Below, one piece after another: positions 18,128-64,000 of a stretch of DNA of 64,000 nucleotides. Both the position numbers and the translations under genes were made by a program. Below the pieces are notes generated by a model, which saw only the letters and a list, made by a program, of their open reading frames with translations, had not been told where the DNA came from and did no database searches. Origin of the DNA: Malachius bipustulatus. Lineage: Eukaryota > Arthropoda > Insecta > Coleoptera > Melyridae. Location of the stretch: NCBI GenBank assembly GCA_910589415.1, contig OU342639.1, positions 14,888,268-14,952,267 on the forward strand. The letters are read 5' to 3'. The stretch's first letter is position 1, and the number at the start of each line of letters is the position of its first letter.

Positions 18128-20734
<2,607 letters not shown>

Positions 20735-44510: not shown

Positions 44511-44542
44511 CTGATGATGTCTACCGCAGCTGTAGACGAAAC
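44511..44542 (+). ncRNA. Hammerhead-like core with a six-pair stem II
   Basis: CTGATGA (44,511-44,517), then stem II GTCTAC/GTAGAC (44,519-44,524 and 44,532-44,537) with a seven-base loop, then GAAAC (44,538-44,542). The core bases match the hammerhead consensus apart from one extra base before stem II. I could not identify convincing stem I and III partners nearby, so this may be a truncated copy. Confidence 0.5.
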
Positions 44543-44877
44543 GCTCGGAGAAAATCTCCATGGACCACGGCACAACTACCCGGAATCAATTATTGCGATT
44601 CCATTTTTAGATTGTCTCCAAAAACAACAATTTAAAAATATGTGAAAGTCTACGCACAATCTAAAAGTGTAATAATGAATGGTGTCCTGTTTCAAATAAA
44701 GAAGTTGATGGTGACTTCCGGTATAACCGGAAGCGGCCCAGTTTTCAAGATATTTTTATTGGACTCAAGTAATGTTGAAACAACCAAATATACAAATTTT
44801 CAACAAAAATCACATAAGTATTTCATGAGATATTGCTAACTGACTCTCGTTATAAAACAACCTGAACAGGTTATCAC

Positions 44878-45488
44878 CCAGTATATGTATGTCCCAACAC
44901 TAGAGTCCACCCCCTAAATAGAGCTTAATTTTAAAGATAAAAAATTGAAACTTTGAGGATTTGTGTACTTGATATAGGACGATAAAAAACTGTAATATGG
45001 TGGTAAATTGTCGAAAAAAAAATCGATTTTTATTCAATATATAGGTAGAAATCGATTAATAAAATCAAAATCGCTTGAAAGAAGTGTGAAAAATCTAATT
45101 TATAAGGCTTTAATTAAAATAAAATATAATTATATAGCAATAACAGGTAGAAAACTGATTTATGATATGTAATAGCGTGATCAATATAATCTGAAAACGG
45201 TAGTTGCGATAAAGTTTTATGACAAAGTAAATAAGGCCCAAATAAATAGAAGGACGGCTCTTGCTGAGCTAGCCGGCACACTGAACCTGCATTGGACAGT
45301 GTCGTATTATGGAGTCATGAAAAAGGTCATTATTAAAAAGCTATTAAATTTTTTTTTAATGAAACTTATTATGCCATTCTGTGGTCCTATATCAAGTACA
45401 CAAATCCTCAAAGTTTCAATTTTTTATCTTGAAAATTAAGCTCTATTTAGGGGGTGGACACTAGTGTTGGGACACCCGGTACATACAA
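44878..45488. repeat. Inverted-repeat DNA element with ends like GGGTGTCCCAACACT
   Basis: The arms are about 100 bp. AGTCCACCCCCTAAATAGAG near 44,911 pairs with CTCTATTTAGGGGGTGGACA near 45,442, and ATTTGTGTACTTGATATAGG pairs with CCTATATCAAGTACACAAAT. The ends match the ACAGGGTGTCCC-type ends of other foldbacks in the window. Between the arms a degraded transposase-like segment is visible. Confidence 0.7.
45190..45325 (+). pseudogene. Possible transposase N-terminal (helix-turn-helix) remnant
   Basis: The plus-strand frame reads LKTVVAIKFYDKVNKAQINR, RTALAELAGTLNLHWTVSYY, then GVMKK. Length, basic character and the ALAELAGTLNLHWTV stretch resemble the DNA-binding helix-turn-helix at the start of Tc1/mariner-like transposases. 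It lies inside an inverted-repeat element, which supports the reading. No catalytic DDE part remains. Confidence 0.45.
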
Positions 45489-45768
45489 TATATCTTTTAT
45501 TCCGTCATGCAACCTCGATCTGACTATCCCGTTTACTGTTCGGTAGACGGTAGCTTTTTAAGTAAGTATGTGCCATAACATCTTTCAAGGAAATCTGCAA
45601 GCTAAACTAAAGAGAACGTTGGTACTTTTAAATTTAACTATTTTTATGCAAGTTTAATAAATATATTTTTTTATCAAACATGACCTAAAACATTTACCCT
45701 ACGTATTTGTGACTTTTTTTATTTTATATAGTGAATATATACAATGTACTTATATGAATTGACATTAG

Positions 45769-45979
45769 GTATCATGGATTCGCAAGCGAGATCTGCATAT
45801 CCTGACAGTGGGCATCCTGACGTACACGAACGACCAAAGGTTCCAGTCGTTGCACACCGACGGCTCAGACGAATGGACGTTGAAAGTGACCTCGCCCCAG
45901 ACCAGAGATTCTGGCATCTACGAATGTCAAGTCAGCACCGAGCCCAAGATTAGCCAGGCGTTCAAACTCAATGTCGTCG
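45769..45979 (+). CDS. dpr: Dpr-family cell-surface protein, second half of immunoglobulin domain 1 (exon)
   Basis: Exon between the acceptor ATTAG (ending 45,768) and the donor GTAAGT (45,980). It starts in phase 0 and ends after one base of the next codon. Translation begins VSWIRKRDLHILTVGILTYT and continues NDQRFQSLHTDGSDEWTLKV, then DSGIYECQVSTEPKISQ. These are the hallmark sequences of Dpr Ig domain 1: W of strand C, the RFQ-x-L-H strand, and the D-S-G-x-Y-E-C tyrosine corner with the second cysteine. It is the direct continuation of 42,350-42,504. The next coding exon (Ig domain 2) is not seen before 64,000, so the intron that follows exceeds 18 kb and contains the polymerase element. 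Confidence 0.92.
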
Positions 45980-48900
45980 GTAAGTTGGCCACTGGTTCCT
46001 AACTCTCCTTATCGATTCCCTCTACCTTCTCTCTAACCGGGGGACCTCAACTAAGGCCAGGTAACATCATGCTAGAGTATTACAAATTACGACGTTTCCA
46101 AGTAGCAGAAGTGTAAGTGTACGTTATTTCTGGAGTTGAGGAGTTAATTAATTTTAAGATAACTTCATCACGACGTTACCACATCCTTTTTAATTATGAA
46201 TCTGAAGCTTTCAATTTTATGTAAGATAACATTGACAAATTACACCTTGACAGAGTGTTATCTATCTGTCATAAATATAAAGTGCAGCTGTCTCACGATA
46301 ACATAATCTGTCTCTGTAAGTACCTTGAGTAATTTTCGGTTTTTATTTTTTCACTAAGACGTTCTAATTTCTTGCCACACATTTTATTGAATTCCTACTT
46401 CTAGATGAAAAACTATATTAATTATATTAACTATATATTGAAGCTAAATGACATGTAGGTAGTCACGTAATTTTTTTCAATAAGTAGCATGATGTCTCGT
46501 AAAATTATCAAAAAATGTGGAATTAATTTTAAAAGTTTCTAAAAATGTTACGAAAAAGTTATTTGTTCCCTACTTTTTCCCAATGAACCAACTATCAACT
46601 CTAGAAGCTACAATTTACTTATTTATTTTTCCTAACTGGATCTTTCTGGATTAATCAAATTTCATTAAATTTTCACAAAATTACTTCTCCATTTGTTTCA
46701 TTCCTGATACTTTATGTTATTAAAAATTATACTCTTGGAATGAAAATTCAAATTTCTCGAAAACTTCTAGAGTTTGGCTTAGGAACGGGCTAATGCTGGC
46801 TTCTGGATTTGTAGGAGGGCAGAACAAGTCCCGCTGCACTGAGGCCACAGTGGCCCATTGTGCTTCCTTCATTTCCTTGAGTCCTTACTCCTTGAGTCCT
46901 TACTCCTTTAGCCATCCCAGGCTCAGAATAAACTGGACGGGTTAATGCAACCGATAGACTGTTTGGAAAACACCCTGTATAACACAGGTCAGATAACAAA
47001 TACATTATAGATTCTTGATAGACAAGCACTTTTGTCATATAGTCATTAAAATCTCAAGACCGCATCTTACAACTTCGTTATTTTAGAGTTCTATTAAGTT
47101 GACAATGTTTTTCAAGAAAAAATAGAAATTACCGACTGTTTCAAAAATTATCAAGGCTAGGACATGATAATGAAAGTCTAAAATTGAACCTAGAATATGA
47201 AAATAAATTCATTTCTTGCAAGTATTTCTTGTTTCAGTTTTTTAAATATTTTGTTTAGACTCAGAAATTGTTGAAACCGACAGTTACGAATTTCCACAAA
47301 TATGACTCAATTATTTGATGAGACATGGCTAACTGAAGATCATCGTACAGCAGTACAGCACTTTGTAGAAACTACTTGAAGTTCTTGAAGTTCGAAATTC
47401 CTCATAGTTTTAAGTAAGTTGAGTCTAAGCTTCATCATGCCGCAAAAATAAGCTAATTTTTTCGAAATTTAAGTGTTTATTATTGTTTTTGGATATAAAA
47501 TAATAATAATATAAAAAAAACATGATTTTGTATTGCAAAATAAGCGGTTTGAGGTAGTTTAAACTCAATTTACTTAAAAAATATGAGGAATTTCGAATAT
47601 TTTTAGGTTTACCTTTTTTTTTAAAAAAAAAGTCCAGGGAATCCAACGCAGATAAGTAAGGTCTTGTAAGTCCGTGGGCTTAGAAGTTGTTGAACAAAAA
47701 AGGGGTCATATAACCTGTATCTACGCCACTGGTGAATTTTTTCACCTGTGGTTATCTTTGTTTTATGTGCTCCTAATTAAAATAAATACCTAGCATCTGG
47801 GTATAAAATTAAAATATTAAAAATTTCTATAAACTGATGGTGAAGTCCTGCTACAAAAAACTGACGCACCCTGTATTATGGTTTCTGCTCACTTTAAATG
47901 TGATTATTTTTGTGTTATGGAGTCATATAGTCGTTGGGGTATGTATAACCCTGTTGTGATGACATATTGTAAATAAATAAATAAATAAATAAAATATCTG
48001 AAAAACAACCAGTAAGGCAAAAGAGTTTATTTTTTCTATTGTTTTCATGTCATGGTTGTCATTGTTGATTACCAAAATGACAACCGGCCATGCTTCGGTA
48101 GGCATTTTATATGACCTCCCATATTCATCCTTTATCCTTGTGGTAAAGAGAGCCATAGCTATCTAAGAATATTTCTTAGATAATAATTGTATTTTCGCAA
48201 AATACACATAACACAAAAAAATATAACAAATAAACAAATAAATAAAAATTATTAAAAACAAATGAAAAGAAAAGAAAAAAACGAAATAAACGTCAAAATT
48301 AAAAGAATATTCAAATTTATTGCAAACATATTTCAGATAATATTCAGATTTAACTTATGACGTATTTATTAATTCAACTCAGCTACCTAACTTTCCCTGG
48401 TAGGATGACCCTACTTATCACAACGCAGGTGCTATTATAGTCATGTGCTAGTCATACCTAAGCAAATAAAATAATTAAATATTATTAAACAGACCACAGT
48501 GGCCCTTGAAAAGGAAATATAGGTATAATATACAGGATTGTAACTATTTAATGGACGACTACTTACATGCAGGCGATCTTAAAAGAATGGAGGATATTAA
48601 AAATTGAAAAATTCCCAGTATTTCCTGAAATATTCTGAAAAACTGCAAAAACGAGAATTCTTATTTTAGCCATATCTTTTTTATTCTTGGAGATTGATAG
48701 ATAATTTTTTAATTATTCTTTTTTTTAATATTTAATTAATTTTTTTTGTAAGTTTATTAATTTTTGATTTTCATTTTTTTTATACCCACCGAACAACAAA
48801 AAAAATAATATGGCGGCATAAGAAAAACAAAAGTTAACAAAAGTATTGTGCAAACAGACGCACATCTTGACATCCTGAGTAGTTTAAACCGAAAATCCAG

Positions 48901-50070
48901 GGCGATCATAAAAATTCTTCATAGCGAAACTGCTTCAGTGAAACATGACTTCAACTCGGCTCCATAACGGTTTATTTTTTCTCTTGCAACATTCCTGTAA
49001 TTTGTCACATTATTAAACATCTCAAAAGTTTAAGCGTGGATAAAAAAAACAGATCTGATTGGTTGGTTAAAATTAACAAAAGACGAAACAAATGGAACTA
49101 TTTTCCATAATTCATTCCATAATTCACGTAACTTTGAAATATGCGACATGCTGTATAGCTTACGATATGTTTAAATTTTAGCCACTAACGTGCTGCCTAT
49201 GACAGATTAAAAAAATCGAAAAAACCACTCGAGTCTTCACTTTTCAGTCATCGACTCAATCATCGGACACTCTCTGTCAGTAGATATACCTAAGATGAGT
49301 TAGAGATAATTTAGGTTACCTTAGGTTACGTTTATTTTCAGTTGATCTAGGTACCTACCTATACTAATAAAATCAAATAATGTAATCAAATATAATAGAT
49401 TGCCTTCGGCTTTTAATAATAGGTATGTCAATTTGATTTAAAACGTTGAGTTACTGATGACGAAGTACTTTTACTTCGTGAACCGTCACTCAACGTTTTA
49501 AATCAAATTGACATACCTATTATTGATAGCTGCGCTTCTTTGAGAAGGAAGCTGTTATTCAATCCAGAAATTAGTTCAAATGTTCGTAATAGTGCCGGGC
49601 CTATGTTTCTTGTCCGGCCGTATGTCGTGTTTTAACTTTCGTTTTTCCTTCGTCAAGTTCCAACGTTTAAAGTAAATTAAGGATTAAACGCATTTATCCA
49701 GAAAAGTCCAGCATTCGAATTTGAAGGCCTCATATGCTAGAGCGTTTTCTAAGATATTTTATACTGAGAAACTTTGGACGAGGTATATAATTCTCTGAGA
49801 GCTCTATTGAAATAGGATTTTCAAATAATAGAAGACCAATTTTGTAAATTGCCTTTTTACTTTAAAAATAAAATTCAGATGGATTTTCTATATTATGTGA
49901 GATCAAAATTGGATATCGTGGAAAAGGAAAGCTGAAAAGCGTATCTAAAATTTTAGGGGATTATTATGAAAAATTTCTTGAAACTATGAAACGAGCTTAT
50001 AAAATTTATAATGCGGCAATAGTAAATCTGAAAAAAACACCATCTACAAGTGAAATATATTCAATTATTT
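45980..50070 (+). other. Dpr intron sequence, mostly unremarkable
   Basis: AT-rich sequence with no supported gene. Small items are CACCCTGTATAA-type repeat ends near 46,970 and 47,868, a TAAA-type microsatellite at 47,970-47,992 and the perfect hairpin at 49,417-49,525. At about 49,905-50,070 a short plus-strand frame (GYRGKGKLKSVSKILGDYYE, then KFLETMKRAYKIYNAA) looks protein-like but has no recognisable family. Confidence 0.5.
49417..49525. repeat. Perfect hairpin MITE of about 110 bp
   Basis: Arms of about 37 bp are exact inverse copies (AATAATAGGTATGTCAATTT against AAATTGACATACCTATTATT, continuing through ACGTTGAGT/ACTCAACGT). The loop contains a second hairpin, CGAAGTA/TACTTCG. It has the form of a tiny foldback element. 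A small-RNA precursor is possible but not supported by anything else. Confidence 0.75.
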
Positions 50071-51365
50071 AAACACCCCTTAGTAGAATAGGTGTGCGTA
50101 TAGATATTTAATGGCTTTTTAATGACCTAAAACCCATTAATGTCAGCTTAAGGGTTATTTATAGCCGTCACTATTGTCTACTTAATCCCTTAATTTCATT
50201 ATTTATTGCTCTGTTATCATGTACTAATCCCTTTGACTTATGCCGCCTACAAAAAAAACCCCTTTGAGTACCTTGCATATCTATAATCCTTTACATGAGA
50301 AAAAGGATTATTGTTGTATTGTTATAGTTACACAATAGCGGTAGCCCCGCTGCAACAGGTGTTCCAGTTGGCACTATTGTCTAATTAATCCCTTAATTTC
50401 ATTATTTATTGCTCTGTAATCATGTACTAATCCCTATGACTTATGCCGCCTACAAAAATCCCCTTTGAGTACCTTGCATATCTATAATCCTTTAACACAC
50501 AGCATGAGAAAAAAGAATTATTATTGTTGTATTGTTATAGTTACACAATAGCCCCGCTGCAACAGGTGTTCCAGTTGGCCAACAGTGGGTCAAATTAAAT
50601 ATTCGATTCTCAATATAAAAATAAAGCCCTTTAACACACACAGGCAGCATGAGAAAAGTAGGTAAAATCTTTCCATGTATCTATAATCCTTTAACACACA
50701 AGGCAGCGTGAGAAAAATAATTCAAAATCATTATTGTTGTATTGTATCATGTACTAATCCCTTTGATCGGTCAGCGACAGTATTCCCCTCATATACACGT
50801 TAAGCTGTATAAAAAAATAGACCCCTTTGAAATCATGATCCCGCGTTAAAAATTCTATACTTAAGCCGCCTACAAACTCTATGATTATCACCGTCTATTT
50901 ATGTAGGTAAGCTGTAAAATATTATTTCTATAAATAATCCCTTAATGTTACACAATAGAGGTAGCCCCGCTGCAACAGGTGTTCCAGTTGGCCTACAGTG
51001 GACCAAATTAAATATTCGATTCTCAACATAGTGCATGAAATCTTTTAAAACCCTTTGATTAAAAGTCATGCATATAATTACATGATCCCGCGGTATAATG
51101 TATCTAAAATCCCCTATGATCGGTCAGCGATATTATTCGCCTCATTATGTAAGCTGTATAAAAATAGAGCCATTTGAAATCATGATCCCGAGTTGAAAAT
51201 TCTATACATATGCCGCCTACAAAACCCCTTAGATTACCTGACCATAACCGTCGTATTATGTAGGTCAAATCTAATCCCTGTTACACAATAGCGGATGCAA
51301 CAGGTGTTCCCAGTTGACTAGCAGTGGGTCAAATTAAATATTCGATTCTCAACACACAAAGTGAA
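50070..51365. repeat. Outer part of the left terminal repeat: degenerate tandem sub-repeats
   Basis: The words CCCCGCTGCAACAGGTGTTC (or GCGGATGCAACAGGTGTTC), AATTAAATATTCGATTCTCA, ATGCCGCCTAC and ATCATGTACTAATCCC each recur three or four times. Sub-repeats are about 200 bp apart at first (50,171 and 50,375) and then longer. From 50,715 inward this is matched by the right repeat. The part left of 50,715 would correspond to sequence beyond the window. The element's left end probably lies between 50,070 and 50,170, but I cannot fix it without the right end. Confidence 0.7.
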
Positions 51366-51607
51366 ACTCGTTCTTCTTCATAATAATTATTTATTTACAT
51401 GGCACAATTAATTAGTAAAAAAAAAATGCGTCGATGCAGATTAAGAGCAGTGCCTACCCAGTTTATATTGATTTTCTCAGAACTAATATTTTGAAGTACT
51501 TCCCTATCTGCACTTAGCCGTTCAATTAGTGTACCTACGTAATGTAAGGTAAAAATTATGTCGTCCTTAACGGTGTATTTTATCAAGGTTTTTGCAAAAA
51601 ATCATAA

Positions 51608-51985
51608 CAGTGGGGTTAATCTTGGGCAAATTTTTTGCACGGTAAATTCATAGTGATATCTTGAAATTACTGAAAAAAAGATTCTCCAGCGGGGTCTTTC
51701 ATTCCGAGTATACATGAAATCTTTTATAGAATTTTGGTAAAAGGGTGAAAAACTCGGAGTTATAACTCCACCTAGAACGAAATTTACAATACTAGGCGTT
51801 GATATTGTACAGTTCAAAAAGTGTAGTAATTGTTTTATAAATTGCTGTTTCAAATGCGTAAATATTTCTAATTCATAACAGTCACGTTTAAGCCTGGAGC
51901 AAATTTTTCCACGGTAATTAAAATTCATAGTGATAAGGCCCCAGATATTATGTCATCCTTAATGGTGTATTTTATCATCTATACA
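51608..51985 (+). pseudogene. Two decayed fragments of the 285-aa gene inside the terminal repeat
   Basis: At 51,880-51,985 the plus strand reads FKPGANFSTVIKIHSDKAPD before decaying. This is nearly the same as LNPEANFSTVIKIHSNKAPD of the intact gene at 52,744-52,803. At 51,608-51,660 a second, frameshifted version starts TVGL and keeps the nucleotide words GCAAATTTTTTGCACGGTAA and ATTCATAGTGATATC. Flanking words (CCTTAA-GGTGTATTTTATCA and TATAGAATTTTGG/AAGGTGAAAAAC) are also repeated, so a unit was tandemly duplicated. Since both terminal repeats match, the right repeat holds the same fragments. The 108-codon frame on the opposite strand is an accident of this. Confidence 0.8.
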
Positions 51986-52220
51986 TGAATGAAATCTTTT
52001 TATAGAATTTTAAGGTGAAAAACAGTGCACAATATAATAACATTTTCATTGCTATTGGGCATTATTATAAGTTTTCAACAACAATTATTTTGATATTCAA
52101 CAAATAAAAAAGATCATTAGAAAATAACAGAACATTTAAATTATTATTTATTCGGGTCCAAGCTCTGCTAGAAGCCCTATGATGAGCGGGGGTAATATCA
52201 GAGAAGGCGGGGCGATGCTA

Positions 52221-52234
52221 GGTATATATTTGGC
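52221..52234 (+). promoter_or_regulatory. TATA promoter in the left terminal repeat
   Basis: GGTATATATTTGGC, followed at about 30 bp by CATCTCCTCATCG and then the leader of the 285-aa gene (ATG at 52,397). The same promoter is present in the right repeat at 62,481-62,494. Confidence 0.7.
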
Positions 52235-52396
52235 GCATCTCCTCATCGTTTTAAATAGAACTAAGCTAGTATAGCTATAGATCTGTAATAAGTTGAACTA
52301 AGCTGTATTATTCAGAGATTCGTATAAACGTGATTGTGAGTTTAATAAGTTGCTATCCTCTTTTACTGCATTTTAAAGCCTACAGACTGCATCAAC

Positions 52397-53380
52397 ATGT
52401 ACCGAAAAAACTTGCAGAATAGTGATAAATTAATGGTGAGTACATAAATAAATTATAAGGGTGAACTTTTATGAAGAGTTATCGTAGAAGTGTATATTAT
52501 TGTAATGCATACTAGGTATCTTGACAAAATTAGCAGCATTAAAATATTTACTATGTTCCAGGCACTCAAACGACCTGCTGGTGAAACCGTTGGCGAGGGG
52601 GTGAAGGGGGCAAAATATGCCAAGCCAACCCCAGGCTCCACCGAATATGAAAATCCTATGCAGAAAATGAATGCCAAATGCCTGCTTTATGCAAACACAA
52701 CTCCTCTGAACGACAGCGAGTGCAAACTAATCACCGTGGGACTTAATCCTGAAGCAAATTTTTCAACGGTGATTAAAATTCACAGTAATAAGGCTCCAGA
52801 TGCTGGTGTTGTGCTGGACTCCACCGGATTCAATGAACTGATGCAGATGCTGCCGGACATCATCAATAATTGTGAAATGGAGTCCTTAGAAGCACGCAGG
52901 AGTTTTAATTTAACGCATTACGTTATAAAAACATGGCACAGCACCAGCATGGCGATAGAACCGAAGTTTCCGGTGAAATACGGATATAATGTATGCCTGG
53001 GAATTGCAAGTTTCAGAAGATTACAAACTTTGGAGAACTACATCAAAGGTGTAATCAGCAATATAGAAAAGGACGACATGCGCATTAATACAATGGGGAG
53101 GCTACGAGCGGAAGCTGAAGAGGCGGCGATGACATCCATCGAGACAGGTGAAGCTGGAAACCTGAACTATGAAAGTTTAACAAGAATATGCGCCAAACTG
53201 GGACCTAGATACATGGACCTTGCCGAAATCGCCGCCAAGTTCTCCAGAGTGCTGCTACCACTGGTACGTTATGCGGTGGAAAAACTACTAGAAAGAGAAG
53301 CAAATAGAAGCCCCTTTGAACGGATACTAGATAGAGAAGAAGCAAATAGAAGTCCCTTTGAACACGCACAAAGAATGTAA
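52397..53380 (+). CDS. Unknown element protein A, candidate single-strand nucleic-acid-binding protein (two exons)
   Basis: Exon 1 is 52,397-52,435 (13 codons, MYRKNLQNSDKLM). Donor GTGAGT at 52,436, acceptor TTCCAG ending 52,561; exon 2 is 52,562-53,380, phase 0, total 285 aa. Residues 14-50 are polar with ALKRPAGETVGEGVKG. A compact domain follows: KLITVGLNPEANFSTVIKI, then a loop, then GVVLDSTGFNELMQMLPDII. That strand-strand-then-helix pattern, with a hydrophobic-x-L-x-x-x-x-F-x-x-L helix, resembles the PC4 single-strand-DNA-binding fold, but this is inference. The C-terminus has EANRSPFE twice. It is a diverged relative of the minus-strand protein at 54,202-55,032. I do not recognise the family. 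Its promoter is the TATA box in the left repeat. AATAAA at about 53,480 is a plausible poly(A) signal. Confidence 0.78.
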
Positions 53381-54201
53381 AAATTGTTTTAAATTGTGTT
53401 TTTTTTAATTATATAATATTATTATATAATATTATTATATAATAATATAAACGTATGTATTTATTAGCAATTAGATAATTGAATAAATATCTAAGTAAGT
53501 GACCTGTTTTTTTTTTTTTTATTTTAATAATAGTATGGGTGATCATACATGTTTTACAACGTTAGAAAATTCAATATCATTTTGTGACAAAGACCATGCC
53601 CACCCCCTAATATTTAATAAAACAAAAGTGGTGGGGTTTAAAAAATAATGATGCATTTAGGATGGTAATTCAACCTTTAAAGTTAATTAAAAAAAAGACA
53701 TGCACTTTCCCACACTAACAAAAACAGAGATTATATTCTCAAATAGGCATTTTTCTAAAATACCCTTTTCTAAAATACCCTTTTTGAATAATAAGATAAT
53801 ATTATAGTACATATTATGTTTACACTTAAATTAAGATTACCATGGAAATGTCCAGTTATCAAGTTAGCCAACGATGTCACATTGAGAAAAATTGTTGGAA
53901 AACTGTAGAATTTGAATTCTTGTAATTCGGATGCCGATAATAGAAAAAAATTTAAGACAAAGGCTATGGTTATGTGAAATAATATGTTTTTCCAGTGGAA
54001 GTTGTTTAAATTTGACAGCCATGTTGATTTAAATTTTTAGAAAAGGCAACCACAAGTATCTCGGTAAAGATGCCGAGGAATTAATGCTATGTTTTTAAAC
54101 TACACAGATAGCGCTAGGCATTCAATTATTGTATAATGAAAGGAGTCAATAAAATGTAACAATAAAAATTCACTTAGGATATTTATTAATAATTATAATA
54201 A
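53381..54201. other. Convergent intergenic region between proteins A and B
   Basis: Contains an AT palindromic repeat of the ATTATATAAT type at about 53,408-53,450. Likely poly(A) signals lie on both strands (AATAAA near 53,480 plus; AATAAA complementing 54,182-54,187 minus). A short tandem word CTAAAATACCCTTTT occurs twice near 53,755-53,785. There is no gene. Confidence 0.6.
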
Positions 54202-55032
54202 TTAATACATGTTATCTAATCCTAACTCGTTAAGTATTTCTCCACTATGCTTATTTATCATTTCCTTAAAACAAATCGCAATATCCTTATCCATACAACA
54301 TGTAAACTTCTTAAGTCCTTGCTTCATTTTGTCATAACTAGCTTCCACAGATCCATATTCTTCAAGTTTGAACTCGTCTATAATTTGCCGTAATATGTTT
54401 CGAAAATTAAGAGTCTCCAGTTTATCTAGATGAAACTCTAATAAATCGGTCAAGTCAATGAGCTGAGTAACCTCTTCTTTACTCATAGCTAACACTGAGG
54501 AGAAATATTGTATCTTGATGTAGTTACCTTCAAGAATATTCCTCGCGGATGTGATAATGTAATCACAGACACTGTGCGCCATAGTCGTCTCATCATCTTC
54601 AAAATAGGCGTCGGAGTTAAGTTTTAAATGTTCTATAATTATCGCCCAATCACAGGATATAAACGATACATTCCCAATGTCCGTGAAAATTCGCACTATA
54701 GGTTGTAGATTTCTTCCCACACTTAATCCTGTAGTTACTATCTTATTTTCTATATTCGAGAGGCGGTAACTCGTCGTTTTAATAGTTACGTCATATCTAT
54801 TCAATTCATCCAAATAAATGTTCAACGCATCATGATTACTGCAGGACTCTGTGAGATGAGGGCACGTCGTCATTTTAGGAAGTGATATAGGTTCTATTCT
54901 GCATGGCACGTCGTATGTTCTTTTCTTCGTTATCGATGAATCTACGAAAACATCTTCCAGCACTCGTTTAGGCGACATCTCGTTCGATACTAACATTGTA
55001 AAAGCTAAGACAATCTCAGCAGATCTAATCAC
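54202..55032 (-). CDS. Unknown element protein B, paralogue of protein A
   Basis: 276 codons from the first ATG. The ATG at 54,996 (MLVSNEMSPKRVLED) or 54,978 is likelier, because a TATA-like word lies only 10-20 bp before the first one. The N-terminus is basic and polar. A segment NIENKIVTTGLSVGRNLQPIV plus RIFTDIGNVSF aligns with CKLITVGLNPEANFSTVIKI of protein A, and SCDWAIIIEHLKLN aligns with its L-D-S-T-G-F-N-E-L-M helix. NYIKIQYFSSVLAMSKEEV corresponds to YGYNVCLGIASFRRLQTLE. The C-terminal half is helical with three Cys (about 239-250). It is transcribed convergently with protein A. A relationship by duplication is inferred from the conserved order of motifs, not from high identity. 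Function unknown. Confidence 0.75.
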   Translation of the reverse strand: MIRSAEIVLAFTMLVSNEMSPKRVLEDVFVDSSITKKRTYDVPCRIEPISLPKMTTCPHLTESCSNHDALNIYLDELNRYDVTIKTTSYRLSNIENKIVTTGLSVGRNLQPIVRIFTDIGNVSFISCDWAIIIEHLKLNSDAYFEDDETTMAHSVCDYIITSARNILEGNYIKIQYFSSVLAMSKEEVTQLIDLTDLLEFHLDKLETLNFRNILRQIIDEFKLEEYGSVEASYDKMKQGLKKFTCCMDKDIAICFKEMINKHSGEILNELGLDNMY

Positions 55033-55039
55033 CGACCAC

Positions 55040-55055
55040 GATTATATTATACCAG
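55040..55055 (-). promoter_or_regulatory. TATA-like box upstream of protein B
   Basis: On the minus strand GGTATAATATAATCG, about 45 bp upstream of the ATG at 54,996. The spacing is suitable for a start site between them. No other core element was identified. Confidence 0.5.
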
Positions 55056-56140
55056 ATCACAGGAGCCGCAGCTGTCCATGTTATGACAAGTAGTGGGAGA
55101 AGGTTGTGGGAAAGACACTCATCGAGCAGACCAGCCCGTCGAAGAGGCACCTGTAGGCGTCGAGTGAAGGATAGCCGTCGGTAATGGAGGTAATAGTGAT
55201 CCAGATGTTCAAGTCAGATCAAGATGCTTAGGTAGAAGTCAGGCGATCAAGGATCTGTATGTGAGGCGAGCAGAGCGGGGGTACCCATCGTCAATCGATC
55301 GGTAACATAAGGTGAATAGTGTTAGATGTGTCATCGCAAAACTCGCTTTATCGCAACTTGTTCGCAGTAAATGACCATCAAACCTTAGTTATAGGGTGAT
55401 GGGGCGTCAAAGAGGAATGTATGTAAAAGTGTAGTTACAATTAAAAAACAGCCTATAAACTATGAACGCATTTATGGAATTCACAAAAGGATGGATATGA
55501 GTATGATATGTTATAACAACGCGACGGACCCGTCCGACCGTTAATAATATCTTAGATAGCAGTAGGTACTCGAATCATGAGTGCATTTTGTATAATGAAT
55601 TAACCCCAAATGATTAGTTATAAAGCAACGTACTGTATTATTGACAACTACATGTCTTGATAAGTGTAGATAAATGATTGTTATAAAAACAGTATGGTTG
55701 GGTGGTAATTGGCTAAAAAGTGTCAACACAGCACTCGATAAGTGCGCAGGTATATATTCTATCAAGAGGCTACCAGGGTAAAAAGGTCAATTATCGCCCC
55801 ATTGAAAAATTATTGGACGCGACAAGCACATCGTATAAAAGCTGTGATCGCCGTGATAAGTTTCTGCTCCAGAGACTTAAATCGAGCTGTTTTTTATCGT
55901 TATACATCTTCTTTAACGTGGGAAAATAAAATAAAATAAAATTACGTGTTTTATTTTTATTAACATCATTTTTTTCAGAAATCATCATAATATACATAGT
56001 GTTTTATATTAAGTCGACACTATTGCTAACTTCGTTATTATTTAAGCTAGAAAGTCGGTTAAATTAGCAACTAGTAGTATTTTTTCTCCTGAATAAAAAA
56101 TGGCGAAAGCAGAAAAACAATTGAACATTGCGTTTTCGCT
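55056..56140. other. Gene-free stretch inside the polymerase element
   Basis: No supported gene. GC is somewhat higher at 55,080-55,330. A second TATA-like word GGTATATATTCTATC on the plus strand at 55,749-55,763 resembles the terminal-repeat promoter, but no credible coding exon follows. Short open frames at 55,720-55,940 overlap in two frames and show no motif. Confidence 0.5.
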
Positions 56141-56141
56141 A

Positions 56142-56185
56142 CAGCAGGCCTAATTAAATATTCGATTCTCAACATAGTGCATAGA
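56142..56185 (+). repeat. Internal fragment of the terminal repeat
   Basis: AATTAAATATTCGATTCTCA followed by ACATAGTGCAT is identical to sub-repeat sequence at about 51,006-51,036 in the left terminal repeat. A piece of terminal repeat has therefore been copied into the interior. Confidence 0.75.
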
Positions 56186-56199
56186 GACTTTTTCCTTTT

Positions 56200-56605
56200 A
56201 AAAAATATACAGGGTGTTCCATTAAAAAATATTCCTTTTTAAACACACACACAAAATTATTATTTACATTAACCTTATAATCTAAAAATGTAAATTATAC
56301 CTACTCTAAAATTGTAAAATATGTACATGCATTTAATATTTTATAATTACATAATCTAGAATAATAATACATACAAAAATTATATTTACAGAACCTGAAT
56401 TCCTTTAAAAATATACAGGGTGTTCCATTAAAAAATATTCCTTTTTAAACACACACACACAAAAATTATTATTTACATTAACCTTATAATCTAAAAAATG
56501 TAAATTATACCTACTCTAAAATTGTAAAATATGTACATGCATCTAATAATTTATAATTGCATAATCTAGAATAATAATACAAAATTATATTTACAGAACC
56601 TGAAT
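56200..56605. repeat. 206-bp direct tandem duplication with ACAGGGTGTTCC
   Basis: Two head-to-tail copies (about 56,200-56,402 and 56,403-56,605). Both contain TATACAGGGTGTTCCATTAA, an (AC)n tract, TAATCTAGAATAATAATAC and TTACAGAACCTGAAT. They lie immediately 3' of the polymerase stop codon on the minus strand. Each copy may be a small DNA element, because TACAGGGTGT-type words mark the ends of several foldbacks elsewhere in the window. Confidence 0.85.
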
Positions 56606-56649
56606 ATATCACAAAATATTTACATATGCCTGATGAAATATTTACACTA

Positions 56650-59600
56650 CTAATCAGAACTGTAGCCGAATGGGAGGGTGTCGTAGGCGTCCACGCGCTT
56701 GCGTTTCGTGTAACAGAGGCGGTAAACTTTTTGCTCAGGTCTGGAGACAACTTCGCAGGTGTTTACCCGGTTTATAGCCTTGGAGTTATAAACGTATTTA
56801 TCGCCGGCCCCCTCGCAAATCATCTCCTTAAGAGTATTAAAATTAACAATTTTAGCATTCTCAAAGTTCATGGTGATACCTTTAACTTTGCAGACGTACA
56901 CAAAATCATTAATCTTAGACGAGAATACTTTCAACGCGTAATTTTTAGGACCACCGCTAACGAACTCAGCTATGTAGCTACCGGCTCCGTACGGAGCAAT
57001 CTCGTCTGTTAGTTGACCCAAAAAATCACCCGTCTCAGGCATCCAATCTCCGGGGGAGCCCTTGAAAATAACGCTATCTGTATCAAAATAAAGGACTCGA
57101 TCGCCCAGTTTATGAAGATACTTGTATAATTCCAAGCGCGCCAAGCAGGTAGTCACTGCAGCTATAACCACGTTTACAGTTCTCAACGGAGTATAGCTAT
57201 CGTCCGACTTATCCCAACATGCTAGTAAGACGTCATCATCGATTATTACAAGATTATGAACGGTGATCGACGGCTCTGATAATAATTGAAAGAGCTCTGC
57301 AGCATCCTTTATAACAGAAGTCTGCATGAGGTTCTCTCTTTGACCGAACTTACCCCAGAAGCTGTTCAATTGTAATTTTGCAATGTATCGCATGCCTGGA
57401 TTGACCTGTATATTGGACTCGTCTAAAATAATACCTTCAACTTCATGGTATTGCTTTAAATACTGGGCACGACTTTCAGATGTATTGCACCAGTCAGGCC
57501 ACCCGCTACATTCTTGCTTAAGCTTTAAGAACTTGTCAATATACCCTGCGAATAAGCCACCCTCTCTGGTCTCTTTGTTGTACGTCTCGCTGGCATACTT
57601 CCAAATCTCGTAATATTCAATCACCTCGTATTCCAACGAGACAGCCAGTTTTAATTCGGCAGCAACAAAGGTGCCATTCAATTGTCGTTCATGTACATCA
57701 TGTTCGCATATACCTTGATTGCCAGTCTCGACACATGTACGACATAAGGGGAACGTTAACTTACCCTTACATCTATAAGGTAGCACCGGCAGATATAAGT
57801 TTTTGGGCGGTAAAACGGAGCATTTGATTAGCCCTACGAGCGTATCAAGATTCTCCGCTTTACAAGCCTCATCACCTATAATTACCTTGGGGTGGCCTAC
57901 AGGATATGTACCGTATTTATTAATATAAGGGTAAAGACTGCAGACGTCGTAATAATATATTTTTTCGGAGTTCGAACACTCGTAGTACAGCTTGATAGCA
58001 TTTGTACGCCCTCCAAAAAATGCGTCGCGTGGATTGAGAGGTTCGTGTTTGTAATTGAAATTATTCTGTAAATATACCCTCATATCTATGTTGTCTTTCA
58101 ACAGCTTCTTAAAATCGCACTCCCAAATAGATTCAACATTGTACCCGAGTGCTAGAAGCTTATTTTCCTTCCATACGGTTCTCTCACGACGTATAAAAGC
58201 CAAGTTATTAATATCAGAGCCGCGGTTATTGACAAATTTTGATGTGGTTTGTTTGGGATGACACCGTTCACAGCCATGATAATAGCATCCATAAAATTCA
58301 TAAACGGTGTTGGTCTCGGCGCAAAACCCGTCTACAAGCAGGTTTGAGGGAAGCCTGACTTCACGACCATTCCCCGCATGTTTAATCGGGTGAGGTGATG
58401 AAGCTTCTTTTAGATTTAACCATTTCAAGGCTACAAGAGACTGACCGTCGACCATTCTGTAACCGTTCGGTGGTAGAAGGCCGATACTATCATTTTTCAG
58501 AAAGTTTCTTCTGAAAACGAGGTTACAGGCTCCGGCAATGGTGACGCTCTCTTGAAACGGATCAACAGCGTTCGTCTCTAGAAAAATTTTTCTGAATTTC
58601 AAACAGGCCATCCTCAGTATGTTTACATCTTCAGTACAATACGACACGATTTCATTTTTCATGTCAAACTGTACATTTCTTGACACCTCGTCATTATACC
58701 ATCGATAAAATTTACCCCGTTCAGTAGCACTCATTTTATCAGGCATATAATTGGAGGCGTCAGGTAAAACGCCATAATAATTAGCGTTCTCTAAGGTATT
58801 AAATAAATGTGGGAAGTATCCTTTACTGCCTTCAAAATTAAAAGTGGCTGGTAGTTTTGCTAAAGGTAGAGGCATATAATTTAAACTGTCTATGATTTTT
58901 ACATTGTGCGTGACTATGGAGATAAATTTACTACCTGTTCGTATGAACTTAGGGTCCCAACGTCCAACATCTTTTAGAAACTCTTTGGCGAGGAAGCAGC
59001 CATCGTACCCTTTCATGTTATGCGCTAGAACTGTGATGTCGAAACCCGTTAGCATTAATCGAGCTAAATACTCTGTAAAAGCTTTTACAGGGCTGTCTCT
59101 AAAGATGTGAGACCTCACACCACAGCTAGCACACGGGGTTGTTATAGACTCCGGCTTGTCTACACACATGGCGCATACCTGCTGGACTACGCAGAGATTT
59201 GGCTCGTGTAGATACGTCTCATCGCCTATCTGCTTATTTTGGGTACATTCCAGATCGAAGAAAACAAGAAAAAATTTTGCGCTTAGCTGTTCTCTTTTCC
59301 TAATACTTAGTTTATTAGGCTGCATAAAACATAAATGTCTAATTGGTTTCTGAGCCATGCATAATGAGCAAAATTTTATACCACAGCTATGTTTCTTGTT
59401 TCCGACCACGGTTATAAGACAGATATTGCACTTGCGGTAAGTCTTGCATATGTCAGGTTTATGAGTTTCAAAACATTGAGGACCTCTAAATAGTCTACGA
59501 CAGACAGGACATTCGATTTTAACCTCGAGAACGCTACAGGGTTTTGGGGAGTGACAGCAAGGACATTTAAACGGACAATTATAATGCATAATTTTATTAC

Positions 59601-61891
59601 TATATCTTTTTAGGCATTTTTCACAGAAATATCGCGAACAGAAGCATGCTGTCAGACTTAAAATCAAATTAATATGATTGTTTTCCATTATTAAGTTAAT
59701 AATTATAGGATCTACTTGATCTTCTTTTAGACCGTTAAAGAACACATCCTTACCGTCACGGCGGTTATAAATTATTAAAGAAATGTTTAGGGTATATAAA
59801 TAATCTTGTAACTGACGAACATCGTCTATAGTAGCACCCCGAGATAAATTGACGCCCGATAAAATGCAAAGTTGACGGCCACGCTCTTCAATCAGGGGTT
59901 TATTTTTGTTTAACTTATGGAAGTCAACTTTGTCAGTTTTATAAGCAACCCCTAATACTACAGCATAGGCCAAACACTTACCGTCCTCGTTATTAACCTG
60001 CAACACACCTCGCTTTCGACTACAAAAGTCTTCAAAGGTCGAACCCCTTAGTTTTATGGCGTTTCCTCTCAGGCGAGGCATCTCGACGCGATCGATGGTT
60101 AGTGTAAGGACTCCCGTTGTGAAGAAATTTGCATTGGACTGCAAAATTTTACCCAGTGTGGCTAAAATAACATCCGCCACTAGTTGGTCCTTTCGGCGGA
60201 ACGAAATAGCCACTGGTCTGTCCGGAAAATCCTCGTTACCGAAAACCAGCCCGACTCTGTCGTCGTCGTTGAAATCCCGCATACCTTGTTGCAGTACTTC
60301 GTCTAAACCTCGCTATAAAAATTACAAAGTCTTATTAGTATTATTGTAATATTCTTTTAATTTACAATAACTTACCTGAATATAAGTTAACGGGGTCATT
60401 AGGCCGTCGTAGCTGTTGTATTTGAACGTGATGCGCCGACCCGTTAACTTAAATTTCTTAAAGGTCCTACTGCTTGTACCTAGGAGTGTTATTACACTCC
60501 TCGAGGTGTGCGGGATTTGCTCACTGCTACGCCTGAAGGTGTCCTGCTGTTGATCTACGTTGCCTCGCCTAAAAGTGTCCTGCTGTTGATCCGCGTTGAC
60601 CCGTTTCTCGACACTGCCACGTCTGAAGGTGTCCTGCTGTTGATCTGCGTTGACACGTTTCTCGAAGTCGTCCAGCAGTCTACACAGCTCATCTGACTGT
60701 CCCGGGTCAACGTCTTCCAAAATAAACTTACGCTGAATGACCTGTAAAATATAAAATTTTTAGCTGCTCTACGAAATCTTCATGCATCAATTAAAATAAT
60801 AAATCTCAGTTTTTACCTCTCTAAGTGTCTGCATCTGGTCTTCGACGAAGGCCCCCTCGTTATACATCCTCAGCAGCTGTGGCAATGTATGGGTTTCCAA
60901 CACCTGATTAAAGACCGCCATGGTAGGCCTCCGTGTACCGCTGCCTGAGGGTTGCACATCTCCAGTTCCAGATATTCTTGGCCCCGTGAATTGCTGCTGC
61001 TGCGAGGGCGTGTTGTTCAAACGTCTATCAAGATCATCCAGGACTCTATACAGATCGCTTGACTGTTGAGGATCTGAGCCTTCAAATATTGTTTTATACT
61101 GTAGGACCTGGAAAATATACTTTTTTGTAAATCTAGGTACATTTTAAACCATTCTAACTACATATTTTTCGTAATTACTATTTTATTTCTGTACGTTTAG
61201 CATAATTGTTAGCTGCAATTTTTTTGATATTCCTAATTAAAACTTCAATGAAATAGAAAAAAATAAAAGTTTAATTATTAAGAACTTGTTTTGTAAAGCA
61301 TACGTTTACAAATTATATAGATTTAGTAAATAGGTGTAATTTTTAAGTAAAAGCTCTTAATATTGAAAATTATTTGCATTTTAAGCACACCCTTGAAAAC
61401 TGCAAAATAGGTACCTATAAGACTAAACTCATAATTTTTTATTATATTAACTTTACACAAGACCGGATTTCATATTTTAGATATTGTGCAAACTGAATGT
61501 GGGATACGTATAACAAATTCCTGTATATGGGCCCTATAGTTAATAAAAAGACATGCACTATTCCACACTAACAGAGGTAAAATAAAATTTTCAAAACAGT
61601 TTAATTGGACCTTATTTTCTAAAATTTATTATCGATGATAAAAATAAAATTTATTAGAGTCACTACTTATGTGTCCCAATTAAACATAGTGTTGAAAAAA
61701 ATGTTTATGCACATGCTAGTTATAATTATTTTTATTCATATTATACTTACATCTCTGAAAATCCGGTACTGCTCAATACATATACATATATTTTGACTGT
61801 ACAAGTCCAATATTTGCGCTAGAGTCCTGTCCTCCAACATTTCTCTAAACGCTTGCAATAAAAGGTCCATAATTGAATCATCAGACGCCAT
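56650..61891 (-). CDS. Protein-primed family-B DNA polymerase, four coding exons
   Basis: Coding exons 61,891-61,751, 61,107-60,817, 60,741-60,376 and 60,312-56,650, all phase 0 with GT/AG, give 1,486 aa. Numbering below is from M at 60,282. Residues 1-75: conserved N-terminal module (VAISFRRKDQLVADVIL). 80-215: N-x-D-x-x-C-L-A ... N-N-H-I-N-L-I, reminiscent of a cysteine-protease-like fold. 213-320: Cys/His clusters. Exonuclease: FFDLECT (341-347), NMKGYDG (422-428), YCTEDVN (548-554). YEFYGCYYHGC (661-671) with WECDF is an endonuclease-like insert. Polymerase: YDVCSLYP (778-785), QLNSFWGKFG (971-980), YFDTDSV (1065-1071). All catalytic acidic residues are present. Exons 2-4 are built from related repeats and could supply a terminal protein (inference). 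The promoter and a non-coding exon lie in and next to the right repeat. No integrase or capsid gene accompanies it. Confidence 0.92.
60376..60741 (-). other. Polymerase gene coding exon 3 with nonapeptide repeats
   Basis: 122 codons. Acceptor TTTTACAG before 60,741, donor GTAAGT after 60,376. It begins VIQRKFILEDVDPGQSDELC, a relative of the start of the upstream exon (VLQYKTIFEGSDPQQSSDLY). The unit DQQQDTFRR occurs three times in a row with spacers (about 60,655-60,530). The end (RRITFKYNSYDGLMTPLTYI) continues directly into the polymerase exon. The repeats make this a low-complexity linker. Confidence 0.82.
60817..61107 (-). other. Polymerase gene coding exon 2
   Basis: 97 codons. Acceptor TTTTCCAG before 61,107, donor GTAAAA after 60,817. 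Its N-terminal half resembles the start of the following exon. Its C-terminal half (VFNQVLETHTLPQLLRMYNE, then QMQTLRE) resembles the end of the preceding exon (AFREMLEDRTLAQILDLYSQ, then QYRIFRD). The exons are therefore products of exon duplication. Confidence 0.8.
61108..61750 (-). other. Intron of the polymerase gene (643 bp)
   Basis: GTAAGT donor, TTTTCCAG acceptor, AT-rich, with no gene of its own. The other introns are much shorter (75 and 63 bp). Confidence 0.75.
61751..61891 (-). other. Polymerase gene first coding exon
   Basis: 47 codons from ATG at 61,891 (MASDDSIMDLLLQAFREMLE) to the donor GTAAGT at 61,750. The exon itself begins at about 61,896 after the acceptor ACAAG. It is short, acidic and helical. 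The ATG is the first in the spliced leader. Confidence 0.75.
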
Positions 61892-61896
61892 TGCCC

Positions 61897-62340
61897 CTTG
61901 TAAGTTAAAATTTCTTTAATGTCTTAAAGAAAATAAAATATCCCTTTCATACATTGCCACCATCAATTTTTGTAATAAAATTCATAATGTTGTTGAAAAC
62001 TTATTATAAAGCAGATAGTAAGAACTTTGCAATAAAGGTTATTATATTGTGCACTTTGTTTTCAAAAAATAATGATTATTTTACAAAAATCTGAACCATT
62101 TCATGGTTATTAACTAGGTATAACTTCATGTAGCATAATAGAGTCCACTGGAGTCTTTCAGACATTTCAAGAATCAATAATGATATCATAATAAAAAATA
62201 AAATTATTTTATTCTCTATATAGTTGGCGCTGTGTATGAAAGGGGTAATAAATAAAAATTTTCAAAAGTTATGTTATTTCTTATGATATGCTTTTATTTA
62301 TTGAATATCGATAATAATTAATAAACGGCCAAGTACTTAC
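61897..62340 (-). other. 5' UTR intron of the polymerase gene
   Basis: The donor GTAAGTACTTGG follows CAACT at 62,341 and the acceptor ACAAG ends at 61,897. This joins a non-coding leader transcribed from the right terminal repeat to the first coding exon. The leader carries a doubled word, AGAGGATTACCAGC and AGAGGATTACCAAC, just before the donor. Inferred by eye. Confidence 0.6.
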
Positions 62341-62449
62341 AGTTGGTAATCCTCTGCTGGTAATCCTCTGTTGTTAAATATAATTATATGTACACTAGCA
62401 CTGTATAATTCAACTTATTACACGCACAATTACGTTTACAAATCTATAA

Positions 62450-64000
62450 CTTAGTTCTATTTAAAACGATGAGGAGATGCGCCAAATATATACCTAGCAT
62501 CGCCCCGCCTTCTCTGATATTACCCCCGCTCATCATAGGGCTTCTAGCAGAGCTTGGACCCGAATAAATAATAATTTAAATGTTCTGTTATTTTCTAATG
62601 ATCTTTTTTATTTGTTGAATATCAAAATAATTGTTGTTGAAAACTTATAATAATGCCCAATAGCAATGAAAATGTTATTATATTGTGCACTGTTTTTCAC
62701 CTTAAAATTCTATAAAAAGATTTCATTCATGTATAGATGATAAAATACACCATTAAGGATGACATAATATCTGGGGCCTTATCACTATGAATTTTAATTA
62801 CCGTGGAAAAATTTGCTCCAGGCTTAAACGTGACTGTTATGAATTAGAAATATTTACGCATTTGAAACAGCAATTTATAAAACAATTACTACACTTTTTG
62901 AACTGTACAATATCAACGCCTAGTATTGTAAATTTCGTTCTAGGTGGAGTTATAACTCCGAGTTTTTCACCCTTTTACCAAAATTCTATAAAAGATTTCA
63001 TGTATACTCGGAATGAAAGACCCCGCTGGAGAATCTTTTTTTCAGTAATTTCAAGATATCACTATGAATTTACCGTGCAAAAAATTTGCCCAAGATTAAC
63101 CCCACTGTTATGATTTTTTGCAAAAACCTTGATAAAATACACCGTTAAGGACGACATAATTTTTACCTTACATTACGTAGGTACACTAATTGAACGGCTA
63201 AGTGCAGATAGGGAAGTACTTCAAAATATTAGTTCTGAGAAAATCAATATAAACTGGGTAGGCACTGCTCTTAATCTGCATCGACGCATTTTTTTTTTAC
63301 TAATTAATTGTGCCATGTAAATAAATAATTATTATGAAGAAGAACGAGTTTCACTTTGTGTGTTGAGAATCGAATATTTAATTTGACCCACTGCTAGTCA
63401 ACTGGGAACACCTGTTGCATCCGCTATTGTGTAACAGGGATTAGATTTGACCTACATAATACGACGGTTATGGTCAGGTAATCTAAGGGGTTTTGTAGGC
63501 GGCATATGTATAGAATTTTCAACTCGGGATCATGATTTCAAATGGCTCTATTTTTATACAGCTTACATAATGAGGCGAATAATATCGCTGACCGATCATA
63601 GGGGATTTTAGATACATTATACCGCGGGATCATGTAATTATATGCATGACTTTTAATCAAAGGGTTTTAAAAGATTTCATGCACTATGTTGAGAATCGAA
63701 TATTTAATTTGGTCCACTGTAGGCCAACTGGAACACCTGTTGCAGCGGGGCTACCTCTATTGTGTAACATTAAGGGATTATTTATAGAAATAATATTTTA
63801 CAGCTTACCTACATAAATAGACGGTGATAATCATAGAGTTTGTAGGCGGCTTAAGTATAGAATTTTTAACGCGGGATCATGATTTCAAAGGGGTCTATTT
63901 TTTTATACAGCTTAACGTGTATATGAGGGGAATACTGTCGCTGACCGATCAAAGGGATTAGTACATGATACAATACAACAATAATGATTTTGAATTATTT
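62450..64000 (-). repeat. Right terminal inverted repeat of the polymerase element (cut by the window end)
   Basis: Inverse of 50,715-52,265. It starts at CTTAGTTCTATTTAAAACG and runs to the last base. If the left end lies near 50,070-50,170, the repeat continues about 550-650 bp beyond the window, giving terminal repeats of about 2.1-2.2 kb and an element of about 14.5 kb. The TATA promoter for the polymerase gene is at 62,481-62,494. Confidence 0.95.
62481..62494 (-). promoter_or_regulatory. TATA promoter in the right terminal repeat, polymerase gene
   Basis: On the minus strand GGTATATATTTGGC, the inverted copy of 52,221-52,234. It would start a leader just inside the repeat, splice at 62,341 and reach the polymerase ATG at 61,891. 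The same promoter sequence therefore serves two different genes at the two ends. Confidence 0.68.

What the first reader, a model, noticed from the sequence alone, without database searches (positions are those of the whole stretch)
50070..64000. A terminal-repeat element with a protein-primed-type DNA polymerase but no integrase or virion genes
Seen: terminal inverted repeats of at least 1,551 bp, one intron-containing polymerase gene with intact exonuclease and polymerase motifs, and two smaller proteins. No frame shows integrase, FtsK/HerA-type ATPase, cysteine protease of the adenain type, or jelly-roll capsid. Known: Polintons/Mavericks combine such a polymerase with all of those. Inference: either a Polinton-derived element that lost its integration and capsid modules and is mobilised in trans, or a separate lineage of replicon related to the ancestors of bidnavirus-type polymerases.
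Basis: partly seen in the sequence, partly recalled or inferred. Interest (0 to 1): 0.92.

Follow-up and report, generated by a model that had tools for sequence, protein, structure and literature searches.

The report
Stripped-down Polinton-like element in insect DNA
An element of at least 13 kb, apparently in a beetle chromosome, has long mirror-image arms, a complete virus-type DNA-copying enzyme and two unknown small proteins but none of the recognisable integration or capsid genes of its Polinton relatives, so it may be a capsid-free, hitch-hiking branch of that family.

Summary
Two inverted arms match perfectly over 1,551 nt; the right arm is cut by the window end. They enclose a 10,178-nt interior that is wholly visible. 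It holds a predicted four-exon PolB gene with intact exonuclease and polymerase motifs and conserved vOTU-type Cys/His residues, plus two intact ORFs (p301, p279). Six-frame Pfam scans of 50070-62446 found only DNA_pol_B_2; no ORF lying wholly outside the three genes exceeds 88 aa. Decayed inverted homology just inside the perfect arms argues against an assembly artefact.

The polymerase belongs to a large arthropod family. Its nearest kin are in the pollen beetle Brassicogethes, where two of the five listed gene models fuse a p301-like segment to PolB, so this pairing is not unique to the window. The conserved vOTU residues speak against a bidnavirus-type enzyme.

Best reading: a replication-module-only derivative of the Polinton lineage, without capsid or integrase gene, probably integrated in trans. 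An autonomous replicon lineage is not excluded. Termini, target-site duplications, other copies, the relatives' gene neighbourhoods and the p301/p279 functions remain undetermined: the right end lies outside the window, the genome search did not complete, and the structure models were unusable. New variant of a known kind.

The parts
50715..52268 (+). left inverted arm, the part matched by the right arm
   Evidence: 1,554 nt, 1 mismatch; 1,551 perfect
62447..64000 (-). right inverted arm, cut by the window end
50070..50714 (+). probable outer part of the left arm: two tandem copies of about 205 bp (50169-50579) and pieces that recur inside the arms; its partner would lie beyond the window; exact tip unknown
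52316..52352 (+). decayed inner continuation of the inverted repeat (partner about 62411-62445)
   Evidence: local score 44; 500 shuffles mean 21.7, sd 2.8, highest 38
51872..51946 (+). decayed p301-like fragment inside the arm (copy at 62769-62843, minus)
   Evidence: 76% over 25 aa; 88% over 59 nt (51888-51946)
52553..53380 (+). p301: intact ORF of unknown function, reads inward from the left arm (ORF open from 52475)
   Evidence: similar to N-terminal segments of two Brassicogethes gene models
54202..54978 (-). p279: intact ORF of unknown function (ORF open from 55041; possible Met codons at 54996 and 54978)
   Evidence: no family or homologue; one weak PHROG match of unknown function, E 0.012
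61751..61891 (-). predicted PolB gene exon 1 (47 codons), donor GTAAGT
   Evidence: no significant similarity to the 120 relatives
60817..61107 (-). predicted PolB gene exon 2 (97 codons), phase-0 borders
   Evidence: shares a duplicated module with exon 3 (E 5e-11); no significant similarity to the 120 relatives
60376..60741 (-). predicted PolB gene exon 3 (122 codons), phase-0 borders
   Evidence: weak similarity to N-termini of relatives, best E 4.9e-5 among 120
56650..60312 (-). PolB gene exon 4 (1,220 aa): vOTU-type D110/C113/H213, zinc-finger-like cysteines, exonuclease (D353/E355, N432/D437, Y558/D562), endonuclease-like insert (D661, E672, H679, C681), polymerase motifs A (D789), B (K979), C (D1077/D1079), KxY (K1123/Y1125)
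   Evidence: motif names are recalled, endonuclease label weak (E 0.029)

Best explanation
A mobile element of the Polinton/Maverick lineage reduced to its replication module. Shown: long, near-identical inverted arms; an intact family-B polymerase with the motif order of Polinton-type enzymes; two small intact ORFs; no recognisable integrase, protease, ATPase or capsid gene between the arms. Inferred: it sits in an insect, probably beetle, chromosome; the N-terminal part of the polymerase primes synthesis at the two ends and the vOTU-like region may release it; replication runs by strand displacement on a linear excised copy, with p301 and p279 as accessory proteins (a guess); re-entry into the chromosome is most likely performed in trans by the integrase of full-length Polintons in the same genome. 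Copying one arm from the other would explain perfect arms next to decayed inner homology.
For: Arm identity with older decayed homology inside it. PF03175 and intact motifs. Three GT-AG introns, all phase 0 by arithmetic on the borders printed. Six-frame absence of other Polinton profiles, with PolB itself recovered. Of the interior, 3,331 of 10,178 nt lie outside the gene spans, with no ORF above 88 aa wholly inside those stretches. Polymerase family of 1,563 proteins at E <= 1e-3 among 7,910 candidates; four of the 120 listed clusters labelled with an insect hold 18 to 35 member sequences, as expected of multi-copy elements. Nearest kin are four Brassicogethes rows. p301-like segment at the start of two of five listed Brassicogethes PolB models (E 2.4e-7 and 5.8e-4 among 120 proteins; one of the two finds p301 back in the window at E 4e-9). 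Published pPolB architecture with terminal-protein and vOTU domains (PMC11071308, sections 6 and 9). Eupolintoviridae contigs with integrase and structural genes are reported for the Colorado potato beetle (PMC12567637, passages), so a helper is plausible.
Against: No helper integrase, other copy or target-site duplication was seen. No Polinton PolB sequence was in hand for a direct tree; the lineage call rests on motif order read against published descriptions. Neither a terminal-protein nor a vOTU domain was modelled. p301 and p279 have unknown folds (models of mean pLDDT 34.8 and 34.2), so virion roles are not excluded. Three of the five listed Brassicogethes models carry no p301-like segment, and the P0001 segment did not find the window (E <= 0.01). 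The genomic contexts of the relatives could not be read; some may sit in complete Polintons. Cluster sizes may include redundant records or several species.
Confidence: 0.5

Rival explanations
1. A separate autonomous lineage: a nuclear linear-plasmid-like replicon that needs neither integrase nor capsid, replicates by protein priming and enters chromosomes through host repair or p301/p279 activity.
For: A p301-like segment next to PolB recurs in Brassicogethes; the PolB family is wide in arthropods; the pattern-plus-tblastn scans of viral contigs found no relatives beyond pieces around the endonuclease-like insert; the gene has predicted introns, whereas intact vertebrate Mavericks are described as intronless (PMC8097293, passages).
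Against: Gene neighbours of the relatives unknown; no integration mechanism identified; absence from viral contigs is weak evidence, since those scans rest on a few short patterns.
Confidence: 0.25
2. A one-off internally deleted Polinton copy, immobile by itself, that happens to keep an intact polymerase.
For: Deletion derivatives are common in transposon families (general knowledge); the vast majority of vertebrate Mavericks are described as degraded (PMC8097293, passages).
Against: Three intact genes, near-perfect arms and a p301-like segment beside PolB in another genus; the last would also fit if complete Polintons of this clade carry p301.
Confidence: 0.14
3. An endogenised PolB segment of a multipartite bidna-like virus, whose capsid genes sit on other segments.
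For: Drosophila Vesanto virus has putative segments with inverted terminal repeats, three of which encode PolB homologues (PMC8363768, section 3.3).
Against: Those segments are 3.3-5.8 kb while the interior alone is 10.2 kb here; three predicted introns; vOTU-type Cys and His kept while bidnavirids are described as having lost them.
Confidence: 0.06
4. The inverted arms are an assembly artefact.
For: Perfect identity over 1,551 nt up to the window edge.
Against: A decayed inverted match continues just inside both arms, which fits homogenised repeats and is not expected of a folded read.
Confidence: 0.05

Closest known systems
Polinton/Maverick elements (Eupolintoviridae; adintoviruses)
   Same: Family-B polymerase with vOTU-type motif and exonuclease; long inverted repeats; reported in beetle and other insect data
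   Different: Three of the four published core genes (integrase, C5 protease, packaging ATPase; PMC3671162, passages) and any recognisable capsid gene were not found; polymerase gene has three predicted introns
Bidnaviridae and Vesanto-type segmented viruses
   Same: PolB plus inverted terminal repeats; PolB can sit on a segment of its own
   Different: No SF3 helicase or parvovirus-like capsid profile found; vOTU-type residues kept; larger; introns
Cytoplasmic and mitochondrial linear plasmids; transpovirons
   Same: Capsid-less replicons with replication proteins of this polymerase lineage (PMC11071308, passages)
   Different: Here apparently chromosomal in an animal; none of the RNA polymerase (recalled for the plasmids) or helicase genes seen; not shown to exist as free DNA

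Membership tests
Polinton/Maverick | protein-primed-type family-B DNA polymerase with intact catalytic motifs | tested here: met
   PF03175 E 8.1e-45; motifs conserved against 120 relatives; TPR1/TPR2 and the priming residue not modelled
Polinton/Maverick | vOTU-like domain with catalytic Cys and His before the exonuclease | tested here: inconclusive
   C113 kept in 97 of 97, H213 in 100 of 101, D110 in 89 of 97 relatives with a residue there; fold not modelled, motif assigned by reading against PMC11071308 and recall
Polinton/Maverick | long terminal inverted repeats | tested here: met
   1,551 nt perfect; that they are terminal is inferred, as the right outer end is not in the window
Polinton/Maverick | retrovirus-like (RVE) integrase | tested here: not met
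   Six-frame Pfam of 50070-62446 at E <= 0.1; Sf Maverick integrases score 4.2e-12 and 5.9e-16 by CDD (PMC5803895, passages), so an intact one should be seen; no known Polinton was run here as a control
Polinton/Maverick | packaging ATPase and adenain-type protease | tested here: not met
   Same scans; the protease is hard to see by profile (6.1 and 0.58 in Sf Mavericks), but no spare ORF above 88 aa remains; small spliced exons could escape
Polinton/Maverick | jelly-roll capsid proteins | tested here: inconclusive
   No capsid profile, but p301 and p279 could not be folded
Polinton/Maverick | (AG)3 or (AGT)2 tips and 6-bp target-site duplication (as described for vertebrate elements) | not testable with these tools
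   Right end outside the window; neither motif occurs in 49000-52268; AGTAG occurs 3 times where 2.0 are expected
Bidnaviridae | parvovirus-type SF3 helicase and capsid alongside PolB | tested here: not met
   Six-frame Pfam scans
Bidnaviridae | vOTU-like domain with replaced active-site residues | tested here: not met
   C113 and H213 kept against section 9 of PMC11071308

The most novel reading that the evidence does not exclude
A stable, widespread arthropod lineage of autonomous, capsid-less and integrase-less replicons: protein-primed polymerase plus a p301-type partner between long inverted repeats, living as chromosomal copies with a linear extrachromosomal stage. It would be an animal counterpart of linear plasmids and transpovirons.
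Probability: 0.22. Interest if true: 0.82.

Novelty: new variant of a known kind. Interest (0 to 1): 0.56.

Why it matters
[quoted passage not shown] a 2024 scheme derives them from tectivirus-like ancestors (PMC11071308, passages). An intact replication-only element in an animal genome, with polymerase kin across arthropods, makes the question of loss and independence testable: the gene neighbourhoods of the 1,563-member polymerase family would show whether small elements arise repeatedly or form one old lineage, and how they integrate. In ten full-text searches of the held open-access library I saw, in listings and in the passages read, no description of such elements in animals; most listed papers were not opened and most subscription papers are not held.

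Tried and rejected
PC4-like ssDNA-binding fold for p301 and p279: suggested by eye; Pfam gave no PC4 hit at E <= 10 for five sequences, the PDB profile search gave three unrelated weak hits (E 0.78 to 1.7), AlphaFold models had mean pLDDT 34.8 and 34.2; dropped. No fold search was run on those models.

p301 and p279 as paralogues: alignment score 45 against shuffle mean 33.6, sd 4.9, highest of 500 was 55; BLASTP E 1.1; with a profile of p301 plus its two kin the eight best rows shown were all shuffled copies of p279; not supported.

Relatives in IMG/VR viral contigs: full PolB, none; a 22-row PolB alignment gave 8 loci, with matches inside residues 513-748, mostly around the endonuclease-like insert; the palm-domain alignment, p301 with its two kin and p279 gave none. 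Word searches for p301 and p279 in the protein database: 1,231 and 567 candidates, none at E <= 1e-3; the length filter hides fused homologues such as P0001 and P0028, which were found by scanning the 120 fetched proteins. PDB by sequence for PolB: one hit, E 0.87, irrelevant. Rfam and tRNA scans of the window: none.

Left tip at 50082 with a possible 6-bp duplication before it: the short motif is no rarer than chance. The 116-aa ORF in each arm scores negative on codon usage in its own frame, judged non-coding. Polinton genes left of 50070: no such profile in six frames of 40800-50070.
Full report
What is there. The window looks eukaryotic and insect-like: it holds reverse-transcriptase ORFs that I label LINE and Penelope-like (RVT_1 in three ORFs; the GIY-YIG match of one is below Pfam's cut-off), and a stretch at about 45.7-46.0 kb matching immunoglobulin V-set at E 1.4e-4, also below the curated cut-off, which I recognise from memory as resembling insect dpr genes. 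If so, the finding lies in a chromosome about 4 kb downstream of a host exon. Inverted arms 50715-52268 and 62447-64000 agree in 1,553 of 1,554 positions, the only mismatch at position 1,552, so 1,551 nt are perfect and the match runs into the window edge. Within the first 250 nt inside the arms a decayed inverted match remains (36-37 nt, score 44; 500 dinucleotide shuffles: mean 21.7, sd 2.8, maximum 38). An older diverged repeat next to a homogenised stretch is what end-to-end copying or gene conversion would leave; it is not expected of a misassembled fold. The outer left stretch 50169-50714 holds pieces that recur inside the arms, so the arm probably extends to about 50.1 kb, but its tip cannot be fixed.

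Genes. The interior, 52269-62446, is completely visible: 10,178 nt. On the minus strand the polymerase gene is predicted to have four exons (61891-61751, 61107-60817, 60741-60376, 60312-56650). All three introns are GT-AG and, by arithmetic on these borders, all exon lengths are multiples of three. Exons 1-3 contain a module duplicated across an intron (ORFs of exons 2 and 3: BLASTP E 5e-11; exon 1 against exon 2: score 50, shuffle mean 22.0, maximum 36 of 500). Exon 3 resembles the N-termini of relatives weakly (best E 4.9e-5 among 120); exons 1 and 2 do not (best 0.67 and 1.7). Exon 4 alone is 1,220 aa, PF03175 at 8.1e-45. Against the 120 listed relatives, gaps excluded: ExoI D and E 115 of 115 each, ExoII N 113 of 116 and D 117 of 118, ExoIII Y and D 119 of 119, polymerase A and C aspartates 119 of 119, motif B K 119 of 119, KxY 120 of 120, vOTU-type Cys 97 of 97, His 100 of 101, Asp 89 of 97, and in an endonuclease-like insert D661 and H679 119 of 119, E672 95 of 119, C681 102 of 114. 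The p301 ORF (plus) and p279 ORF (minus) are intact, improbable by chance, and fit PolB codon usage best in their own frame, by small margins (0.102 and 0.050 per codon, next best 0.067 and 0.007). A decayed piece of p301 lies inside both arms.

What is not there. Pfam scans of all six frames of 50070-62446, stops written X, E <= 0.1, returned only DNA_pol_B_2. The 3,331 nt outside the gene spans hold no ORF above 88 aa; the longer ORFs that remain are antisense to PolB or lie in the arms. Six frames of 40800-50070 returned only immunoglobulin profiles in one stretch. Limits: no known Polinton was run as a control; the Maverick protease is poorly seen by profiles (Sf Mavericks: 6.1 and 0.58, against 4.2e-12 and 5.9e-16 for integrase; PMC5803895, passages); p301 and p279 match no family and their models failed, so 'no virion gene' means none recognisable.

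Relatives. The protein search gave 1,563 hits at E <= 1e-3 among 7,910 candidates, 120 shown. The best are Brassicogethes aeneus (58%), Aquatica, Photinus, Pyrocoelia, Zophobas and Tribolium; the list also holds an odonate, a leafhopper, a sawfly, a wasp, ants and many unnamed metagenome proteins. In a quick tree of the window and 55 of the 120 (45 from named organisms, ten unnamed; P0028 and P0048 were left out beforehand as a fused, shortened model and a partial one), the window groups with four Brassicogethes rows at SH-aLRT 100, so the host is probably a beetle. Of the five listed Brassicogethes models two, P0028 and P0001, begin with a segment similar to p301 (phmmer E 2.4e-7 and 5.8e-4 among 120 proteins; alignments). 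The P0028 segment finds p301 back in the window at E 4e-9, 29% over 68 aa; the P0001 segment does not at E <= 0.01. This suggests that a p301-type gene neighbours this polymerase there too. Four clusters labelled with an insect hold 18 to 35 member sequences (Macrosteles 34, Neodiprion 35, Exocentrus 19, Pyrocoelia 18), which fits multi-copy elements, though members may be redundant or from several species.

How it most likely works (inferred except for the anatomy). Published models give eukaryotic protein-primed polymerases an N-terminal terminal-protein domain and a vOTU-like protease thought to detach it (PMC11071308, sections 6 and 9 read). This gene has room for both: the exon 1-3 region and the C113/H213 region upstream of the exonuclease. 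The element would be copied from its ends by protein priming and strand displacement; single strands can pair through the arms, which would homogenise them. p301 and p279 would be accessory. With no integrase gene of its own, integration is most simply supplied by full Polintons, whose genes are reported in Colorado potato beetle data (PMC12567637, passages).

Comparison. Polintons are described as sharing PolB, integrase, C5 protease and packaging ATPase as core genes (PMC3671162, passages). This element shows one of the four, so it is not filed as a Polinton, although its replication module is of that type. Bidnavirids are described with replaced vOTU residues, unlike here. Vesanto virus shows that PolB-bearing segments with inverted repeats exist in insects (PMC8363768, section 3.3 read), but its segments are 3.3-5.8 kb. 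Papers seen: PMC4061559 (first of five parts and passages); PMC11071308 (passages and two sections); PMC8363768 (passages and one section); passages only of PMC5803895, PMC11071296, PMC12567637, PMC12220804, PMC8097293 and PMC3671162.

Open points. Right terminus, target-site duplication, copy number, helper integrase, p301/p279 function and the gene neighbourhoods of the relatives. The genome search did not complete (14 attempts), so nothing is said about other copies.

Noticed in passing
18131-27369: Another element-like structure with long inverted arms (904 nt 100% and 819 nt 99%, contiguous) enclosing an RT-GIY-YIG ORF (20735-23071, minus; Penelope-like by recall) and about eleven 169-bp tandem units at 22994-24979. 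It showed no similarity to the PolB element's arms.
   Followed up: partly
36041-41594: Inverted repeats (317 nt 95% and 243 nt 98%) flank a LINE-like pair of ORFs (36795-38048 with PRE_C2HC, 38017-40776 with endonuclease and RT); an unusual arrangement for a LINE.
   Followed up: partly
49409-49530: A 122-nt near-palindrome (87% self-complementary), MITE- or hairpin-like, about 540 nt left of the proposed element start.
   Followed up: no
45742-46002: Immunoglobulin V-set-like stretch, below the curated cut-off (dpr-like by recall), so the element may sit in or near a host intron.
   Followed up: partly
56192-56605: Two 93%-identical 210-bp tandem copies just 3' of the polymerase gene.
   Followed up: no
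60322-61143: The N-terminal module of the polymerase gene appears duplicated across an intron, and exon 3 holds further short repeats.
   Followed up: partly
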